Source: Cryphonectria parasitica EP155
Taxonomy: Eukaryota; Ascomycota; Sordariomycetes; Diaporthales; Cryphonectriaceae
Direction of reading: 5' to 3'
Assembly (NCBI RefSeq): GCF_011745365.1
Contig: NW_024468914.1
Coordinates: forward strand, 3,312,228-3,376,227
Length of the DNA: 64,000 bases
The position numbers and the translations under genes were made by a program. Position 1 is the first letter of the stretch, and every line of letters begins with the position of its first letter. This document shows positions 54,375-64,000 of the stretch, in pieces. The notes under the pieces were generated by a model that was not told the origin of the DNA, did no database searches, and was given only the letters and a program-made list of their open reading frames with translations.

Positions 54375-56403
54375 TCAACTTCTGCTCCTGGGATAACCAT
54401 TGATATGACTGTATTATAATGAAGTTAGTTATGCAATTGACCTTGATTGTCATTGTTGAATACTCGCATTGATCAGGGCGGACTACAACAATTGTAGTCT
54501 CACTTGTGCCAACACCAAGCGTATCAAACGCATGGCCATGGCCGGAATTGTAACTCATGTCGTCGACGAAGACTTTGTGCAGACCTTGAATGCAAAGTCA
54601 GTGTCAAATTGTGAACAGATGAGAACCAGAAACGCTCACTTCGAATTCTATATTTCCCAGTCACGGGCTTAAACACTTCAGGTATCTGTACCAGCTCAAT
54701 GTTCGTGCGCTCTGCTTTGAGGACCAGCAGGGGCTCGATCAGACTGTCTGGATCAGCTCCATCGGGTGTAAACTCTTGGATGAGCATCTCAAGCTTTCTG
54801 CCAACGTCTTCGAGACGGCTCTGTATAGTCTTTTGCTGAACATCCCCGTCAAACACAAGAATCCTCCATCGACAGTCTGATTTGATCACGCTGAGCAGCT
54901 GGAAAACCCTTGCGTCGCTGTACCTGACGACCTGTGCGCTGGGCAGCCTCATCCCGACCACTAATTGCGGTCCCGTCTCAGCATTGCTGACTGGACTTGT
55001 CTTTGCCACAGCCATCTGCGTGTCGTGGCCCTGAGAAGGCCAGACAATGATGTTCTTGTCATATCTGTACGCCTGGCCGGCTGTGTATCGTCCCGCCTTG
55101 ACAAACGCGTCTCTCACCAAATTCGAATCATGCCCAGCCGCGTCTCCACGACCGCTTGACTTGAAGATCTGGGTCCACTTTCGGTCGAAGTCGATGAGCT
55201 CCGTGGCCGTCTTCTGTCTCTCGCTGACGTACGTCCTCACCAGATCCTCGCTGGCTTGGCCTGAGAGATACGCACCGAGCTTCCAGCCGATATTGTACCC
55301 ATCCTGCAGACTGAGATTCATGCCCTGTCCAGCCTTTGGGGAGTGCGTGTGGCATGCATCACCAGTCAGGAAGACGCGGAATCGCTCGTGAAAGTGATTA
55401 GCCAGTCGCTGTCCTATGGCGTATGCGGACCACCACCTCGTCTCGGCGATCTCCAGCTCGTACGGTCTGAAGATGAGCCGTGCGCGGTCGTGAATATCTT
55501 TTTCGGTGATCTCGCTGGCAATGGTACCGGGGGGGAATTCGATGTAGAACCTTGAGATTTCATCACCCTCGCGAGGGATGATCATAAGAGTGCCCGAGGT
55601 GGACTGAAGAACACTCTTCTTGCGGATGTCAGGGAAGGTGGTGCGTGGGAAAATATCAGCAACGCCCCAGATGGCATTGGTCGAATCGCCGAGCATGCTG
55701 AAGCCCAGAGACTTCCGGACTGCTGAGTGTGCACCATCACAGCCCTGTCAGGAGCAAGCAGTGTTAGCAGCCCTTCTCCTCGACAGTTTCTCTCTCTGCT
55801 GTTCCAGCAAGGTTTAGAGGCACATCAACTGACCAAGGCGTACTTGGCACGGAACAAGACTTCCATGCCATCCTTTCTCGCAGCCACAGTAACAGGATAT
55901 GCATCCGGGTCATCCGCCTCCTCAGAATCAACCTTGACATTTATCACCTCATGCCCATACTCAACATTCGTCCCGCCACACCGCAGCATCTCATTCGTGA
56001 TGAGCTCATTGATGCGCGTCTGACTGAGGATAACATGTGGCTGGTGACTCAAACCAGGCTCCTTGTCAGGCGCAAAATGAGACCTTTTGATGCCGCCGCC
56101 GCCGCCTTCCCCATCCTTCCCATCCGCATCAAGGCCAGTGTTGCCATCAGGCCCCCAGAACGCTATCTCCAAGACATGATACGACTCCCGCAGCAGCTCC
56201 TCTGAGATGCCAAAACTCTCAAAAATCTCAACAGTGCGGCACTGCACGCCGTCGGCCTTGCCCACCACGAGGGGGCCGTCGCGCGCTTCGAGAATTAGGA
56301 ACGGGATGTTGTATTTGGCCAGCCACAGGGCCGCCATTAGCCCGGCTGAGCCGGAGCCGCATATGAGGACTTCGGTTTGACGGACCTTGCGTGGGTTGGA
56401 CAT
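54375..56403 (-). CDS. FAD-dependent aromatic monooxygenase (phenol 2-monooxygenase type)
   Basis: A group A flavoprotein hydroxylase like phenol 2-monooxygenase, which uses NADPH and O2 to hydroxylate aromatic rings. Exons 56403-55834, 55744-54640, 54584-54464 and 54408-54375 join in phase and give 609 residues. The N-terminal Rossmann motif GSGSAG (about 16-21) binds ADP of FAD. The CDGAHS motif (192-197) and GDACHTHSPKAGQGMN (from 318) bind FAD and NADPH. The C-terminus is the thioredoxin-like dimerisation domain of phenol hydroxylases (about 430-600), ending with the VVVRPDQ strand. The last exon is only 34 nt and its intron (55 nt, GTATTC donor, CTAAC branch point) is inferred. The family usually continues a little past RPDQ, so the true C-terminus may differ. 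It neighbours the UstYa gene and may act in the proposed RiPP pathway. Confidence 0.88.
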
Positions 56404-56965
56404 GGAGGATTATATTGCATTGGGATGCTTTTGATAATGGCTCCCAAGTCCAGGGGTTGCTGAGAGGCATTCAAATGTGAATTATAAGTATAAAGGCAGA
56501 GAAAACAGTCTAGGGAAACGGTCTAGGGTGTTTCGTTTCTCCGCACAGAAACCGCTGCGCGTTCCCGTGCTCCACATGGATGATGCGCACCGAAGGACGG
56601 CACTTGAGTATTACGAACGCCATGGGTATGGGCAAGCATAAGGCTTTCATAAGACAGGCTACTCACGATGACTAGTGACCGATTCACAGTGTTGGATTTG
56701 AGTTGATTATGAACCTAATTATATTGATTCAGAGAAGGTTGGAAAAGATAGCATACAAAGGCCGAATCATGTTTTCCTTTCACTGATACAGAAATATGAC
56801 ATCTCCACAACTCATGTCGTCTCTGACTGTTTCTGTTCGTTTTGTTCCATTTTGCAAGACAAATAGGAGCAGATCCACAACTGCACGTACATTGCAAGTC
56901 GTCGAAATATGTAGGTCCGTTACTGGGCCCAAGTACTCATTCGTCATTCTTTCTCAGATTCCCAT
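56404..56965. other. Spacer between monooxygenase and UstYa-like gene
   Basis: A 560 bp gap with the monooxygenase promoter; an AT-rich TATACTTATAATT-like element lies near 56475-56490 on the minus strand. No gene is seen. Confidence 0.45.
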
Positions 56966-58233
56966 TCAAGGAGGCGTCTTCATCCCCTTCACACCCGCTG
57001 GCTTCAACGGTGGGCTAAGCATCTTCTTACCTACACCGTCCTCCCATTCGACAGTGATATCCCGCCCCTCGTTCCACTTGGTAAGCGTATCCCACTTCTT
57101 GCAAGTGTGGATCGTATTGAAGTTGGGATGCGGCACTACCAAGAGCGAACTTGTTAGCTATCTGGACCAGATCGAGCAGCAAGCAGGAAGAGTTCGGCTG
57201 AAGGGGAGGGAAAGGCGCATACTTGACCTGCCCTCGACCCAATTGTAGGTCAACAAGCTAATGTCCCCATGACACATGAGCGTCTGCCGCAGCATCTCGA
57301 CGCAGTGGCTCAGGTGTCCCTGAACAATAGATTCGGGCGCCCCAGCGAACGAGCCCTCGTGCTTGTCGTAATACTCCCTGTGGGTAGCCTTGCGGAGGAG
57401 GTCGACGCAGTGAAGCTGGTGGAAGACGTCCAAGGAGGCGAGGTACTGGCCGGTGCCGTGGTCCTTCTCGAGCAGGACTGGGTAATCGTGAAATTGATTC
57501 ACCGCCTCCCACTGCTCTTTGGTGATGCCGATGGCACCGCCTGCGGGACCTAGGACTCAGTCAATGTCATCCTGACCATTATAAAGAAGGAAAGAAAGGA
57601 TCTTAGTCTTTCATGGGTGTTTTCTCCCTGAAGCTTGTGAAAAGAAAAACACTTACCGTCTGTAATCTTATCCCAGGCTGCGTCAGTCTCTGGGCCGATT
57701 CCCGTGTACTCGTTCTCCCAGCCAAATGTTCCCTTGAATCGTTGCACTTCATACTCCACACCTTGTTCCGCGTCAGGTACTAAATTTAAACGAGAGTTCA
57801 GCGTCAGCAGGTCCCCTCTGATTCAGAATACAACACGATCCTCTCTTTTTGTGCGTATATATATATATATATATATACATGTAATTGAAAAAGACTCACG
57901 CCACTGGCCTAGCAACCTGCCGCACTCCAACTGCCGTTGATGAAGCGAGGGCTTATGATAGACCGTCAAAGTGAAAAGCACACACGAGACGCCAAGGAGT
58001 ATGACCTCGAGCCCGAGGCGCCAGTATCTCCTGAGCAACGACCTTTTCACTGGTGGCTTCCATTCCTCATCATGAAGGAAAGACTCTTGCTCGCTGGAGC
58101 CGTCGCGGCTGGCGTCCTGACTGCTCTGCTCCTTGCCACCATCATCGCTGACGGGCATGTATGAGGGAGAGGTCATCTTCTCCTTGGGAGACAGAAGACC
58201 ATTGGCGATCTGGGAGAACTTTGGGAGGGCCAT
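56966..58233 (-). CDS. UstYa-family (DUF3328) oxidase
   Basis: Member of the UstYa/DUF3328 family. In ustiloxin, phomopsin, asperipin and cyclochlorotine clusters these membrane-anchored oxidases install cross-links or hydroxyl groups on peptides. Four exons join in phase: 58233-57900, 57779-57657, 57549-57223 and 57135-56966, giving 317 residues. The N-terminus is cytosolic, followed by a single membrane helix (about 72-92, LGLEVILLGVSCVLFTLTVY), so the catalytic part faces the secretory lumen. Both signature HxxHC motifs are present: HQLHC at 196-200 and HLSHC at 231-235, followed by the family's CHGD. A YEVQRFKGTF segment and HTCKKWDTLTKW near the C-terminus are also typical. Intron 1 contains an (AT)11 microsatellite. 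It lies head-to-head with the repeat precursor across about 860 bp, which suggests shared control. Confidence 0.93.
57856..57877. repeat. (TA)11 microsatellite in UstYa-like intron 1
   Basis: Eleven TA units within the first intron of the UstYa-like gene. Confidence 0.85.
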
Positions 58234-59089
58234 GATGAATGGGAGAGTGTCTCAATGACAATGCTAAAGGGGGAAGTGCTGTGAAGGGGGCAGGTCATAG
58301 AGAAGCAGAACAGAACGGCAGGGAACGAAGCTGCACAAATAAGATACGAGGGGTATCAGAAGATATTACTCAAGAAACACCTGTTGGATGAATCTCATCA
58401 CGTAATTTACTCCGCTTCTATTATCTCAATGCTGACGGATAGTGGGACCTTGGCCTCGAGGCATGAGACTAGAATGTGAGTACGTCGATCACCAACAGTC
58501 CTAGACTGGACAGCATCATGGGATCAAGTTTACCCTGGTAGTTGCAGCTGAGGGAGCAAGTTTAAATGCAAGATAGGAGGTACGTCGGCTCAATTTGTGC
58601 GAGTGTGATTCGTTATGTTTGGTGATCACCTCATGTGTCTCGTCCTAGACGCTGCAGCATGAGCTCAACGGTGGCGGGATAAGAGGAGAAAAAGAGCATG
58701 AGAACTGGATCGACTTATGCAGGTAAGATCTCATATAGGCAGGAGAATGCGAGTTGTGTTGGCAAGCATCGGCAGCAGATCGCTTCCAGGCCCTGTTCAT
58801 GAGTAATAGTGTGACCATCAGCAAGTCTTATTGCAGATCTAGTGATAGTATTGACTCTTAGAGAATCTTGGCACTTGGTCTTCTGGTAGACTCGTGCCTA
58901 TCTTCTCTTCACTGATTGTATACAATTATGTGCCGCATGAAATGAAAAGAATAATATAAAGAACCAGAGGTGGCCTGATTCTGCATAGACCCATTACTGC
59001 TGAGAAGAACAGCTACCTCGAAATCTTCTCATCACTCCATACCTAGTCAGCATCATTCGTATATCCTCAACACGCAAACTGTCGACATC
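58234..59089. other. Bidirectional promoter of UstYa-like and precursor genes
   Basis: This 856 bp stretch separates two head-to-head genes proposed to act together. It contains a TATA box for the precursor and one palindrome CCTCGAGG near 58455-58462. No gene is seen in it. Confidence 0.5.
58955..58960 (+). promoter_or_regulatory. TATA box, RiPP precursor
   Basis: TATAAA lies about 130 nt upstream of the precursor ATG at 59090, in a plausible core-promoter position. Confidence 0.5.
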
Positions 59090-59703
59090 ATGAAGTTCTC
59101 CACGGTCATTGCTGTGCTTGCTCAGGCGTTCGCCGTCTCCGCGGCCGCCATCCCTGGTAAGTCCTTAGCCACAGGAACCCAAGCACTACGGCTCACTACA
59201 AGAAATATCAATGAGCCAGTGGCTGATGGAGAAATATAGAAGCTGCCAAGCGTGACGAGGACTGGAACGCCGCGGCGTGGTCCAACTTCATCAAGACGTA
59301 TTTCGAGGGTTCTGAGGCTGCCAAGCGTGATGAGAATTGGAACGCGGCCGCTTGGTCCAACTTCGTCAAGAGCTACGTTGACGGAGCCGAGGAGGCCAAG
59401 CGTGATGAGGACTGGAACGCGGCCGCCTGGTCTAACTTTGTGAAGAGCTACGTCGATGGTGCCGAAGAGGCCAAGCGTGACGAGAACTGGAACGCCGCTG
59501 CTTGGTCCAACTTCGTCAAGAGCTATGTCGACGGTGCTGAGGATGTTAAGCGTGATGAGAATTGGAACGCTGCAGCTTGGTCCAACTTTGTGAAGAGTTA
59601 TGTCGATGGTGCCGAGGACGCTAAGCGTGATGAGAACTGGAATGCGGCCGCCTGGTCCAACTTTGTCAAGAGCTACGTTGACGGCGCTGAGGAGACCAAG
59701 TGA
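59090..59703 (+). CDS. Secreted Lys-Arg-repeat precursor, candidate RiPP (dikaritin-like)
   Basis: Exons 59090-59156 and 59240-59703 (83-nt intron, GTAAGT donor, TAG acceptor) give 176 residues. A signal peptide (MKFSTVIAVLAQAFAVSAAA) is followed by a short spacer ending in AAKR. Then come six repeats of 25 residues (the last 24), each ending in Lys-Arg except the final one, which ends in Lys. Lys-Arg is the site for kexin in the late Golgi. Within each repeat the segment DE(N/D)WNAAAWSNF is invariant, and SYVDGAE is constant in repeats 2-6; repeat 1 has TYFEGSE. No cysteine is present, so this is unlike alpha-pheromone or defensin precursors. Fungal dikaritin precursors (UstA, PhomA) have the same plan: signal peptide, tandem Kex2-bounded repeats and a Tyr-led core. 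Together with the adjacent UstYa gene this supports a RiPP precursor. The product is unknown. Confidence 0.85.
59254..59700 (+). repeat. Six 75-bp coding repeats of the precursor
   Basis: Units start at 59254, 59329, 59404, 59479, 59554 and 59629, the last being 72 bp before the stop. Synonymous positions vary between units (the Ala-Ala-Ala codons use several different combinations), while the encoded residues barely change. This suggests protein-level constraint and not only recent duplication. Confidence 0.95.
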
Positions 59704-60887
59704 TTCAGGACATACCTCGATCTTTGGACCGGCTGAGGACGTTTGTCTACTACCAGGACATTCGTTTCATGGCCTCAATAGTTGCTACATGTAATTAGTC
59801 ATTCATTTGGGAATAGTCCTCTTAGCACCATGAATATGATCTGTGGCTATGCAAACACATTCATGAGACAACGTGCTCTACAGTTCTCTTCTTCTTCTTC
59901 CTCATCTTCCCTCTCCCTCTCTTCTTAACAGACTAAAAGTATGACACGGACTAATCCTATGTCTGGATTCACCGTGTACCATGATCCCTATGTGATGATG
60001 AAGACACGTGGGTTATTTTTAGGTTAGAAAAGAGCCACGGAGGTACAAGTCCACCAATCACATCAATCATCATTCGAAACCAAGAAAAAAGGAGGAAGGT
60101 AATCATCATGGTTCTCATACCCTTGCCTTGAAAGTTAGCACTAAAAAGAAGCAAGACTGGATAGTAAAGTTTCCCGAGGCAATATGCAAGGCGAGTCGTT
60201 TGAGGTATGGCGCAAACCGGTCTGGTAGCTCACAAAAGGGACCATGGTGACTCTTTAGTGCTGAGCCCCAGGGGTTTGTGAGACCAGCGTTGTGCGAGAC
60301 CAGCGTTCTGTGCAGCAGGCAGATCCAGTCTGCCAACAAAACTGGTTAAAGAGCGTGTTCACGAGATATGACCACTTTGCATATGCACAATACGATAATG
60401 TATTGTCTCGGTTTACAGAATCTCCAACGTCAAGAAAAAGCTGGAATGCGGCTCTGCAAAAATGGGGCACAGTTCGGGTTGCTGTGGGTTGCATTTCCCT
60501 GAATAGTGGTAAAATCTCAGCGGACAGGGGACTTTTTGTTTTGTGGAGTCGACTCATCACTACTTTGATTGGCGATCTCATCTAAGTTCTTTAATGTGCT
60601 ATACAAAGTTACAGGGTGTCTAAGTAGTGTATCATGCATCTGAATTGCAGCGAAAACAAACTATCAGGTCCGGGGAAAACACGGCATCCTTCATCTCTGA
60701 CGCCAATCTACTGTAACCTTGACACTCCACGAACCGGTTTCGACTTGTTCTTCCCCGCCCCTCTGACCACATCAAGTATCCACACACACCAAGTCAGCGC
60801 CGAAGGAGAAAGAAAAGCCCAGACCTGTCATACATTCCTGCTTTCTTACTCTAAATCTATCTCTCTCTCTCTCTGTCTCAGATTCTT
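59704..60887. other. Spacer between precursor and MFS gene
   Basis: This holds the precursor 3' flank and the MFS 3' end. Between 60240 and 60585 both strands are open for about 100 codons, but neither has domain or splice support. A short direct repeat, GAGACCAGCGTT, occurs twice near 60280-60306. A CT-repeat tract lies near 60860-60878. Confidence 0.45.
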
Positions 60888-62699
60888 TCAAGTAATAGCC
60901 AAGGCGGATAGGATCGGGCTTCGAGCGCGGATGCGCGGTCCCCACAAGACTAAAACCCAGGGGACGACGCCCAAGGCCAGGCCGATGGAGCCAAGTAGAC
61001 AACCAGAACCCGTGGGGCCAAGAGTATTAAACATGGGCTCAACGGCCAGGGGCAGACAGGCAGCAAAGACATTGCGGGTGAAACTCTGGGCAGCGATGGC
61101 AGAGCTGGCGTAGGTGTGGTAGGTGTCGGCCAGGTAATTGAAGACAGCAAGGTAGACGGTAAAAATGCCAAGCGTGGTGCTGCCAATGGAGAGCACAGGG
61201 ACCACCCACGGGATCGAGGGACGGCTCGTGGCGCCGAGCCAGAAAAGGCCGGCGGGGAGGAGCAGGGCCTGGAAACAGGCAAACACCAGCCGGATCTCTG
61301 GCGGTGGCGTCGTGGTCAGGGCTGCCACGTCGGGCCCACCCTGTGCCCCGCCTGCGCGCAGTAGCACGCGGATCCAGCCGAGGGTGTGGCCTCCCGACGA
61401 CGTAGGATCGACCAGGAGGAGACCATCCTGCCATACTGCGGCAACGGTGCCGAGCAGGGATGCAACGATGACGGGGGTGAAGCAGAGGCCAGCCGCTTGT
61501 GCTGAGAAGCCGTACACCCGCTCAAAGACCAGCGGGATGATCTCGAACGTCATGTACAGGATCGACCAGGCAAAACTCATCCAGATGGAGAACCAGAACA
61601 CGACGCTCTCGGTTACCAGAAGCTGGATGGGCCGCAGCAGGGATGTTTTGACGAGCTGTGGGACGGACGCTCGATCCTCGTCGGCCTTGACCCTCCACCG
61701 GATCTGCACCACCCTCCTGCTCCTCGTCAGGCTGCTGTCGACCGGCTTGTCTTGGTCGCTGGCTCGGCAGATGGTCCATGACTCAGACGCAGACGCAGAA
61801 GGAGAAGAAGGAAAAGAAGGAGGAGGCGGGGCTGATTGTGAATGCTGCACGGCGTCATACCAGGCGTTGAGCACGCTCGCCTTCCGGCTGAGCAGCACAT
61901 TGCCTCTTGTCTCAGGGAAGAACAGGCATAGCGCGGCAACCATGAGGGAGCAGGTGATGGTCTGGAGGTAGAAGATCCACCGCCAGCTCAGGTGCTGCTC
62001 GATCACGCTAGACACCAGGGGCCCAACGCCAGTGCCGGCCAGTGCAGCACCGGTGAAGATGGCCATGGCGGTGTTGCGATCCTTTGCGACATAGATGTCA
62101 CTAATCACGCCGCCGACTACGGCACTGAAGACGGAGCACGACATGCCTGCGAGGGCCCTGGTCACCAGCATGCCGGCAAATGACTGTGTCACAGCCGATC
62201 CCAGCTGGCTGACAGCAAAGACCACGCCTGCAGTGACAAAGAGCGGCCGTCGACCGGTGATCTCGGACAGCGAGGCGAGTACCATGGGCGCCACTGCAAA
62301 ACAGAGCGTGAACACGGTAATTCCACAGTAGACGGCGAGGTTGCTGACGCCCCACTCGGTCTGGTATTGAGGAGATCCTGCCGTGTAAGCGCCTGGCGTC
62401 CATGTCGTGAAGAAGGTGGAGAGGCAGGACAGCCAAGTCACAAAGGATTTTCGGGTGCGGGACCAGCCTTGCGGGTCGGAAAATTGGGATAAATGAGGGG
62501 GGCGTGGTGGCACAGGCGGTTGGTTGTTGTCATTCTGGGACAGGATTCTTGGCTCTGCCGGTGACAAGTCGGTCGAGAAGGTAAGATACCTGTATTCGAT
62601 CTCGTCATGCACGTCGTTGTCGCCTTTGCCGCCCTCTTCTTCTCCTCCTCCTCCTCCTCCTCCTCTCTCACCGAGGTGGATCTCGTCGGGATCACCCAT
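60888..62699 (-). CDS. MFS transporter, DHA1 type
   Basis: A drug:H+ antiporter-like MFS protein of 603 residues in one exon, starting at ATG 62699. The cytosolic N-terminus is acidic and has a Gly run encoded by GGA/GGC-rich DNA. The segment WSRTRKSFVTWLSCLSTFFTTWTPGAYT enters helix 1, with the TAGSPQYQTEWGVSN loop usual in fungal DHA1 polyamine and multidrug members. Twelve hydrophobic helices are visible, with ALAGTGVGPLVSSVIEQHLSWRWIFYLQ (motif C and the following loop) and a long charged central loop (about 290-340). In ustiloxin-type clusters an MFS protein (UstT) is thought to export the product. This gene is the nearest transporter to the precursor and may play that role; the substrate is not shown by sequence. 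Confidence 0.88.
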   Translation of the reverse strand: MGDPDEIHLGERGGGGGGGEEEGGKGDNDVHDEIEYRYLTFSTDLSPAEPRILSQNDNNQPPVPPRPPHLSQFSDPQGWSRTRKSFVTWLSCLSTFFTTWTPGAYTAGSPQYQTEWGVSNLAVYCGITVFTLCFAVAPMVLASLSEITGRRPLFVTAGVVFAVSQLGSAVTQSFAGMLVTRALAGMSCSVFSAVVGGVISDIYVAKDRNTAMAIFTGAALAGTGVGPLVSSVIEQHLSWRWIFYLQTITCSLMVAALCLFFPETRGNVLLSRKASVLNAWYDAVQHSQSAPPPPSFPSSPSASASESWTICRASDQDKPVDSSLTRSRRVVQIRWRVKADEDRASVPQLVKTSLLRPIQLLVTESVVFWFSIWMSFAWSILYMTFEIIPLVFERVYGFSAQAAGLCFTPVIVASLLGTVAAVWQDGLLLVDPTSSGGHTLGWIRVLLRAGGAQGGPDVAALTTTPPPEIRLVFACFQALLLPAGLFWLGATSRPSIPWVVPVLSIGSTTLGIFTVYLAVFNYLADTYHTYASSAIAAQSFTRNVFAACLPLAVEPMFNTLGPTGSGCLLGSIGLALGVVPWVLVLWGPRIRARSPILSALAIT

Positions 62700-63693
62700 G
62701 GCTGGAATCCCAGGGTGGGTTGGATGTTGCGAGAGAGCCTGGAAGGAGTTGGCCTGGCTAATAATGAATCGGGACTAGTTAGTAAGTACTCATATGGCGC
62801 AGTTCACCGTCGAGGTGGTATGCTTGGTCCTCGGAGGAGAATCCGCAGGAAGATGTCATAGTAGGATATTGTTGTGCATTACTGTCGAACGAAGACAAAG
62901 GATAGCGGCGGTCTTATAAATTGGAGCCGATGCGTCTTCATTGGTTATCTGTGCGGTAAGACGGAAACACGACGATCAAGGGTCTCATTCTTTTTCCATG
63001 CAGCTGCAGCAAGGGTTTGGATGACCGTTTTGTTCCAAAACAGTTAGTCTTTTGCAAGACTTGCATGGCTCTACTGCACAACGGTTCCTTTGAAGGACCC
63101 TTGAACCGAATCCTCTCCCGCCCCCCAGAAGCCGCAGTGCTTTTTTACGTAACCTCACCGGGATTGCGCTCGCCCTCCTGGCAAGCAAGAAATCAAGACA
63201 GCCTGGTACAATATGCCAGGGAAATTGTCTCATTCTCCTGTTTGCTGACCTCAAGATCCACATAACTAGCCAAAAACAAGTAAAGAATAAGCAAAAGAGG
63301 CAGTGCACGTTGCCATGCGGGAGTGCTTGCTACAGGCGTAATACCGTTGTACTTTGGCTTTTCTTGTCTTGTTATCCATAAAACGGCGCTTAGAATGCAT
63401 TCAACGTCGACTTAACCAAGTGACTATTTGCAGGACCTAATCCTCATTGGGAAACCAAAGCGAGTTCATTCATGAGAATTCAGATCTGTACTTTTATCTA
63501 CCACCCTTGTATCCACCTTTTTTGTTGCCTAAATCCAGGGGATCTTTGTGCGTAGTAATCCACCTTTCCACCTCCCCTCAAGATGCATCTATCTTGTACC
63601 ACGAGAGTAGTACACAGTAAGTATCTATGACGACTATACTAAATTCTAATTCTTTAGCAGAAATCATGTTATGCAACATTGCGCGTTCGCGGT
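62700..63693. other. Spacer between two MFS genes
   Basis: A 1 kb gap. A TTTATAA-like element lies near 62913-62920 on the minus strand, about 210 nt upstream of the first MFS ATG. No gene is seen. Confidence 0.45.
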
Positions 63694-64000
63694 TCACGCC
63701 TCCCCCTGAGCCCACGTAGCACGATCCATCTCCACGCTGTACTTGGCAAAAGGACTGGCTTGTCTCAGCCTCTTGCTATACCGGAGGAATACCCAGGGTG
63801 CCAAGCAGAAAAGTACCGAGACCCCAGCCAGGATGGATCCGGCATCGTTGGCGCTCAAGTTCTTGTACATGGGCTGTGCCACAAGCGTCATCAGCCCGGA
63901 AATGATGGCTCTGACAAAGGCCAGCCCGGAGAAGGCAGAGGCACTATAGAGCAGGTAAGAGTCTGCCAAGAGGCCGCTGAGTGTGTAGGCTATCTCGTTG
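63694..64000 (-). CDS. MFS transporter, C-terminal part, runs off the window
   Basis: The minus-strand frame is open from the right edge to the stop at 63694 and gives about 101 C-terminal residues. It carries the last helices of a fungal DHA1-type MFS protein: NEIAYTLSGLLADSYLLYSASA, FVRAIISGLMTLVAQPMY, and SILAGVSVLFCLAPWVFLRY, then a short tail with LRQASPFAKYS as in polyamine and multidrug transporters of this class. The start lies outside the window. It is the second MFS gene beside the precursor and belongs to the same strand as the first. Confidence 0.85.
   Translation of the reverse strand, partial: NEIAYTLSGLLADSYLLYSASAFSGLAFVRAIISGLMTLVAQPMYKNLSANDAGSILAGVSVLFCLAPWVFLRYSKRLRQASPFAKYSVEMDRATWAQGEA

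What the first reader, a model, noticed from the sequence alone, without database searches (positions are those of the whole stretch)
54375..64000. Candidate fungal RiPP (dikaritin-type) gene cluster with an unrecognised product
Within 9.6 kb lie a Kex2-repeat precursor, a UstYa/DUF3328 oxidase with both HxxHC motifs head-to-head with it, an aromatic FAD monooxygenase, and two MFS transporters. UstYa next to a secreted Lys-Arg-repeat precursor is the hallmark used to recognise dikaritin clusters such as ustiloxin, phomopsin and asperipin. The repeat sequence matches none of the cores I know. No tyrosinase, methyltransferase or peptidase is visible inside the window, so the cluster either is small or continues past 64000.
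Basis: partly seen in the sequence, partly recalled or inferred. Interest (0 to 1): 0.93.

Follow-up and report, generated by a model that had tools for sequence, protein, structure and literature searches.

The report
Conserved fungal secreted-peptide and oxidase pair
In the chestnut blight fungus, a gene for a secreted protein made of six near-identical peptides sits head-to-head with a probable copper oxidase gene, and the same pair turns up in distantly related fungi, which points to a modified peptide product that did not appear in the papers searched.

Summary
The window is Cryphonectria parasitica EP155. At 59090-59703 (+) a two-exon gene encodes a 176-aa secreted precursor with six 25-aa repeats. 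At 58233-56966 (-), 856 bp away head-to-head, a four-exon gene encodes a complete UstYa/DUF3328 protein with both HxxHC motifs. The pair is not a chance neighbourhood: in 4 of 6 other named genomes with a precursor relative (four fungal classes), a close UstYa relative lies on a contig of identical length, with consecutive locus tags in two. The core W-N-x-x-A-W-S-N-F-[VI]-K-x-Y is nearly invariant in 51 repeats of 20 proteins. Within the gene, repeats 2-6 differ at synonymous sites (pS 0.74) but hardly in amino acids (pN 0.03). No other UstYa match lies within 300 kb and no tyrosinase match on the contig, so the unit is small, like asperipin-2a. The FAD monooxygenase and MFS genes are neighbours with no evidence of belonging. 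I read it as a UstY-type RiPP of a known and common kind with a new Trp-rich core. Cross-linking is inferred, not shown. Two text searches found the core letters in no held paper; figures and supplements were not searchable, so it may be an unlabelled type in an earlier survey.

The parts
59090..59156 (+). Precursor exon 1: secretion signal (MKFSTVIAVLAQAFAVSAAA)
   Evidence: Splice model gives one open frame of 176 aa; hydrophobic stretch, 2.2 on the Kyte-Doolittle scale; signal judged by eye, no signal-peptide predictor here
59240..59703 (+). Precursor exon 2: six repeats DE[DN]WNAAAWSNF[VI]K[ST]Y.., five ending in KR and the last at the stop
   Evidence: TRF array 59244-59700, period 75
58234..59089 (.). 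856-bp shared upstream region between the two divergent genes
   Evidence: Gene models
57900..58233 (-). UstYa exon 1: N-terminal tail and single hydrophobic helix
   Evidence: best hydrophobic window residues 73-91
57657..57779 (-). UstYa exon 2
57223..57549 (-). UstYa exon 3, with HxxHC motifs HQLHC (196-200) and HLSHC (231-235)
   Evidence: both motifs in 16 of 18 aligned proteins, own one included
56966..57135 (-). UstYa exon 4 to stop
   Evidence: whole protein identical to P0008, M406DRAFT_357276
54524..56403 (-). Neighbour: FAD monooxygenase of the phenol hydroxylase type; membership not shown; C-terminus not modelled
   Evidence: Pfam PF01494 3.7e-68, PF07976 2.5e-31
60888..62699 (-). 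Neighbour: MFS transporter; membership not shown
   Evidence: Pfam PF07690 3.5e-34
63694..64000 (-). Neighbour: C-terminal part of a second MFS transporter that continues in L010; membership not shown
   Evidence: Pfam PF07690 on its L010 part 4.2e-19, no family on the window part

Best explanation
A two-gene UstY-type RiPP unit. The precursor enters the secretory pathway by its signal peptide. The membrane-anchored UstYa, facing the organelle lumen and holding two copper ions in its HxxHC...HxxHC site, oxidises each repeat at aromatic residues of the conserved core W-N-x-x-A-W-S-N-F-[VI]-K-x-Y, most likely forming side-chain cross-links. Kex2 cuts after each Lys-Arg, exopeptidases trim the acidic tails, and a modified peptide of about 13-23 residues is secreted, up to six per precursor. 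Shown here: gene structures, motifs, co-conservation of the pair, purifying selection between the repeats. Inferred from relatives: copper chemistry, Kex2 cleavage, cross-linking, final size. The little-changed core in four fungal classes would fit a standing role, such as a signal, better than a fast-changing toxin; that last step is inference only.
For: Complete gene models and motifs. A precursor and a close UstYa relative lie on contigs of identical length in Biscogniauxia marginata (562445), Stipitochalara longipes (2788198), Rasamsonia byssochlamydoides (363345; tags VTN77DRAFT_3164/3165) and Acrodontium crateriforme (1278406; tags R9X50_00557400/00557500); four classes. Core: both Asn and Tyr in 50 of 51 repeats, first Trp and Lys in 49 of 51; Ala, second Trp, Ser and Phe are 51 of 51 only because repeats were found by the pattern AWSxF. 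Repeats 2-6: pS 0.738, pN 0.032. The DUF3328 protein CctR is a membrane-anchored binuclear copper enzyme that acts on a peptide (PMC12435403), and a dicopper UstY enzyme makes the asperipin-2a ether link (PMC12186524 passages; PMC6514808 passages).
Against: No product is known and no chemistry was tested. DUF3328 proteins also hydroxylate and halogenate, so a cross-link is not certain. In 10 of 14 other named genomes with a UstYa relative no precursor was listed, and in 2 of 6 named genomes with a precursor no UstYa with a matching contig was listed. Missing annotation may explain both (no database protein equal to the EP155 precursor was returned), but this is unproven. The Acrodontium precursor match is weak by itself (E = 0.036). 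The cores of ustiloxin, phomopsin and asperipin are 4-6 residues (nine in the separately classed epichloecyclins), shorter than this one.
Confidence: 0.8

Rival explanations
1. Linear secreted peptide (pheromone, hormone or effector type KEP) released by Kex2 without oxidation; the UstYa beside it serves another substrate.
For: The repeat architecture is shared with linear KEPs such as mating factors (PMC7329392). The conserved unit is long and keeps non-aromatic residues too.
Against: A close UstYa relative is on a contig of the same length as the precursor in 4 of 6 other named genomes, with consecutive tags in two. In Umemura 2020 the genes of almost all mating-factor or pheromone KEPs (three exceptions) lack a DUF3328 neighbour. 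The species has a separately named pheromone precursor, Mf1/1; I did not fetch or compare it, and that its core holds cysteines, unlike this one, is recalled.
Confidence: 0.12
2. A larger gene cluster in which the phenol-hydroxylase-type FAD monooxygenase hydroxylates the peptide and one of the MFS proteins exports it.
For: The genes lie within 5 kb on either side; asperipin-2a has a cluster transporter, ustiloxin has flavin monooxygenases.
Against: MFS_1 was the most abundant profile in the genomes surveyed by Umemura 2020 and sat on average 7.7 genes from KEPs, against 3.1 for DUF3328. The FAD enzyme is of the phenol hydroxylase family, whereas UstF1/UstF2 are class B flavoprotein monooxygenases. 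The outer neighbours of the pair in other genomes could not be read, so this rival is not excluded.
Confidence: 0.2
3. Membrane-lytic amphipathic helical peptide, analogous to other Kex2-released cytolytic fungal peptides.
For: Four aromatic residues at positions 1, 6, 9 and 13 of the core could line one helix side (by eye).
Against: The helical hydrophobic moment is not exceptional: 12-39% of shuffles reach it for the five peptide stretches tested; net charge of the full 23-mer is -4.
Confidence: 0.05

Closest known systems
Asperipin-2a unit (aprA, aprY, aprT, aprR; Aspergillus flavus)
   Same: Repeat precursor with a single UstY protein; no tyrosinase among the four listed genes and no peptidase gene (passages)
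   Different: Core FYYTGY of six residues; here 13 conserved positions with two Trp, one Phe, one Tyr. No transporter or reductase shown to belong here
Ustiloxin and phomopsin clusters (dikaritins)
   Same: Signal peptide, KR-bounded repeats, DUF3328 proteins
   Different: No tyrosinase match on the contig, no S41 peptidase match in the genome by six-frame search, one UstYa and not two or five; different core
Di-histidine and Trp KEP types with DUF3328 of Umemura 2020 (G-3, G-8, P-3)
   Same: KEP genes accompanied by DUF3328 genes with non-Tyr cores; G-3 and G-8 span 20 and 18 genera
   Different: Here Trp and Tyr lie together in one long core; whether it is one of the 838 types could not be checked (tables in supplements, motifs in figures)
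CctR, cyclochlorotine hydroxylase (DUF3328)
   Same: Same enzyme family, HxxHC(x)nHxxHC, single membrane helix
   Different: Acts on a non-ribosomal peptide, hydroxylates

Membership tests
Dikaritin / UstY-type RiPP | Secreted precursor with repeated cores bounded by Kex2 sites | tested here: met
   secretion judged from sequence, cleavage not tested
Dikaritin / UstY-type RiPP | DUF3328 (UstY) protein with two HxxHC motifs encoded close by (class-defining enzyme according to PMC12048977 passages) | tested here: met
Dikaritin / UstY-type RiPP | Pair conserved together in other genomes | tested here: met
   4 of 6 other named genomes with a precursor: contigs of identical length, 2 with consecutive tags; 2 of 6 not found; 10 of 14 named genomes with UstYa had no listed precursor
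Dikaritin / UstY-type RiPP | Aromatic residue in the core for cross-linking | tested here: met
   Tyr in 50 of 51 and first Trp in 49 of 51 repeats; second Trp and Phe are forced by the search pattern
Dikaritin (five-gene definition of Ding et al., as told in PMC12048977) | Tyrosinase in the cluster | tested here: not met
   All nine matches lie on other contigs; asperipin-2a also lists none
Dikaritin (five-gene definition of Ding et al., as told in PMC12048977) | Transporter or peptidase | tested here: inconclusive
   No PF03572 (S41) match in the genome, other peptidase families not searched; MFS genes are near but not shown to belong
Dikaritin (five-gene definition of Ding et al., as told in PMC12048977) | Methyltransferase | not tested
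   No methyltransferase search was made; none among the ORFs given to Pfam
Dikaritin / UstY-type RiPP | Side-chain macrocycle in the product | not testable with these tools
   Needs mass spectrometry
Fungal mating-factor KEP | No DUF3328 gene beside it | tested here: not met
   UstYa 856 bp away; rule, with three exceptions, from PMC7329392

The most novel reading that the evidence does not exclude
The pair makes a long (13-23 residue) peptide with UstYa-made cross-links that involve the two conserved Trp as well as Phe/Tyr, and because the core is nearly frozen across four fungal classes it acts as a shared fungal signal rather than a lineage toxin.
Probability: 0.2. Interest if true: 0.75.

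Novelty: new member of a known kind. Interest (0 to 1): 0.45.

Why it matters
In Umemura 2020 most Kex2-repeat peptide types are confined to one genus, though nearly 200 types are not and several DUF3328-linked ones span 11-20 genera. This one keeps a 13-residue core in fungi of four classes, beside a close UstYa relative in 4 of 6 named cases. It is a compact two-gene system in which to ask which residues a copper UstY enzyme joins when Trp is available, and what a conserved modified peptide does for a fungus. No database protein equal to the EP155 precursor was returned, so such genes are easily missed.

Tried and rejected
Scans that led nowhere: UstYa and a core DNA pattern in viral contigs gave nothing. 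A shorter core pattern in bacterial and archaeal genomes gave 37 stretches with one match each, all with bacterial titles, which I take as chance and did not use. NCBIfam named neither protein above a cut-off. Pfam matches of the precursor to DUF3669 (whole-protein score above its cut-off) and Inhibitor_I29 (below it) have no stretch that passes alone and are taken as repeat artefacts. No solved structure matched the UstYa profile. The UstYa model is weak (mean pLDDT 55.7, 18 sequences), so I ran no fold search. The UstYa tree has no well-supported inner branch (0 of 15 starred), so transfer between lineages against descent with loss is left open. Amphipathic lytic helix: hydrophobic moment within shuffles. 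A cluster continuing past 64000: large ORFs in the next 30 kb include two MFS genes (one cut by the window end), a beta-eliminating lyase, another MFS, a sulfatase, an SMC-like gene recognised by eye only, and a nitrilase-type, amidohydrolase and hydantoin-racemase group; only ORFs of 130 or 180 aa and more were listed there, and not all were given to Pfam. Two papers, on a copper-dependent DUF3328 enzyme and on phomopsins, are not held. Mended in this version after checking: I had called the spread over four classes unusual, but the survey lists other DUF3328-linked types spread over many genera, so I lowered interest from 0.5 to 0.45 and the novel case from 0.25 to 0.2.

Full report
What is there. 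The window lies at C6:3312228-3376227 of a 43.8-Mb genome. Its UstYa protein is identical to M406DRAFT_357276 of Cryphonectria parasitica EP155 on a contig of the same length, 3,950,794 bases. The precursor gene has two exons, 59090-59156 and 59240-59703, and encodes 176 residues: a hydrophobic signal-like start, then six 25-residue units, five ending in Lys-Arg and the last at the stop. UstYa has four exons from 58233 to 56966 and 317 residues, with one strong hydrophobic helix (73-91), HQLHC at 196 and HLSHC at 231. The genes diverge from an 856-bp gap. The repeat part of the precursor has one match in the genome at E <= 10, itself.

More than chance. The tandem array is unambiguous. Repeats 2-6 differ at 74% of synonymous sites but 3% of non-synonymous sites (uncorrected Nei-Gojobori proportions; all six repeats 0.715 and 0.070), so the peptide, not the DNA, is held constant.

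Relatives. A search with the precursor gave 7 proteins. A profile search gave 20 at E <= 1, including those 7; only the 7,993 candidates sharing most words were scored. With the own one that makes 21. In 20 of the 21 I aligned 51 repeats on the pattern AWSxF; the remaining one, P0040 of Acrodontium (E = 0.036), reads VWSNF and has a single core. Some metagenomic rows are near-duplicates or fragments, so the 51 are not independent. The common core is W-N-x-x-A-W-S-N-F-[VI]-K-x-Y: both Asn and Tyr in 50 of 51, first Trp and Lys in 49 of 51. Ala, second Trp, Ser and Phe are 51 of 51, but the pattern forces that. Flanks vary.

The pair travels together. Searching with UstYa gave 20 proteins at E <= 1e-40, own one included. 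I compared contig lengths and locus tags of the two lists; no tool showed the gene order itself. Six named genomes other than C. parasitica hold a listed precursor. In four a UstYa relative lies on a contig of the same length: Biscogniauxia marginata (562445), Stipitochalara longipes (2788198), Rasamsonia byssochlamydoides (363345, tags 3164 and 3165) and Acrodontium crateriforme (1278406, tags 557400 and 557500). In two, Xylariaceae sp. FL0255 and Penicillium hordei, no such UstYa was listed. Conversely, 10 of 14 other named genomes with a UstYa relative had no listed precursor. Short intron-bearing genes are easily missed (no database protein equal to the EP155 precursor was returned), but I could not test this. 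The four genomes belong to Sordariomycetes, Leotiomycetes, Eurotiomycetes and Dothideomycetes. I aligned 18 of the 20 UstYa proteins (P0025 and P0027 left out). Both HxxHC motifs are present in 16 of the 18; P0023 lacks the cysteine of the first and P0018 has a gap at the second.

Boundaries. Large ORFs in the next 30 kb beyond the window are transporters, a beta-eliminating lyase, a sulfatase and a hydantoin-type group, and a scan of the window and those 30 kb for Kex2-repeat proteins found only this precursor. The nearest other UstYa match on this contig is about 331 kb from the UstYa of the pair. Tyrosinase matches are on other contigs only and no S41 peptidase was matched. The unit is thus small. 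I found no link between the pair and the FAD monooxygenase or MFS genes, but had no means to read the neighbours in other genomes.

Mechanism. CctR, another DUF3328 protein, is a membrane-anchored dimer with two coppers per monomer at HxxHC(x)nHxxHC and needs O2 and electrons (PMC12435403, parts 1 and 2 of 3 read). A UstY enzyme forms the Tyr-O to Phe C-beta ether of asperipin-2a with a dicopper site (PMC12186524 passages). By analogy UstYa here should oxidise the cores in the secretory lumen, before or after Kex2 cutting. Which residues are joined is unknown. The conserved Tyr fits the known chemistry; a link at Trp would be new for a UstY product as far as the passages I read go.

Comparison. 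Umemura 2020 (abstract, section 6 part 1 of 2, sections 7 and 9 read; passages of others) counted 7,878 KEPs, 22% with a DUF3328 neighbour, in 838 types plus 2,560 stand-alone ones. Most types were found in a single genus, but nearly 200 were not, and DUF3328-linked types such as G-3, G-6, G-8 and G-10 span 20, 19, 18 and 11 genera. So both the kind and a wide spread have precedents. The type tables are in supplements that I could not open, so this core may be an unlabelled type there. Two searches with ten core strings found no held paper. Other papers were seen as passages only (PMC12048977, PMC6514808, PMC9233826).

Context in the same genome. I fetched 20 further stretches, covering 34 of the 35 other UstYa matches, and found three more KEP-like genes near UstYa: twelve APAYVW repeats on C8, SYLIV repeats on C4 and HH-containing repeats on C1.

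Verdict. A real, conserved two-gene UstY-type RiPP unit; new member of a known kind; product and function open.

Noticed in passing
L015:3678-4461 (C8, about 2,090,677-2,091,460): Second KEP: signal-like start plus twelve EEEAPAYVWASVNKEKR-type repeats, about 4.5 kb from a group of UstYa matches (C8:2081218-2086176).
   Followed up: partly
L022, about 4435-4130, minus strand (C4, about 106.1-106.4 kb): Four repeats SYLIV[AS]ADEEP[AS]T in two groups, with KR/RR sites, beside a dense group of UstYa matches at C4:107844-114432; looks like two tandem short precursors.
   Followed up: partly
L026, about 1.8 kb and below, minus strand (C1, about 903-904 kb): Long repeat protein with many AREPHHQGKGKKNNGRDVEDLE-type units about 3 kb from UstYa matches at C1:907132-907643, recalling the di-histidine KEP types of Umemura 2020.
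   Followed up: partly
P0040, Acrodontium crateriforme R9X50_00557400: Apparent single-core precursor (signal-like stretch plus one WNSAVWSNFVKSY) with the locus tag next to its UstYa, possibly the minimal form of the family.
   Followed up: no
L012:2561-8666: Nitrilase-type hydrolase, amidohydrolase and hydantoin racemase in a row, probably an unrelated hydantoin or pyrimidine degradation group.
   Followed up: no
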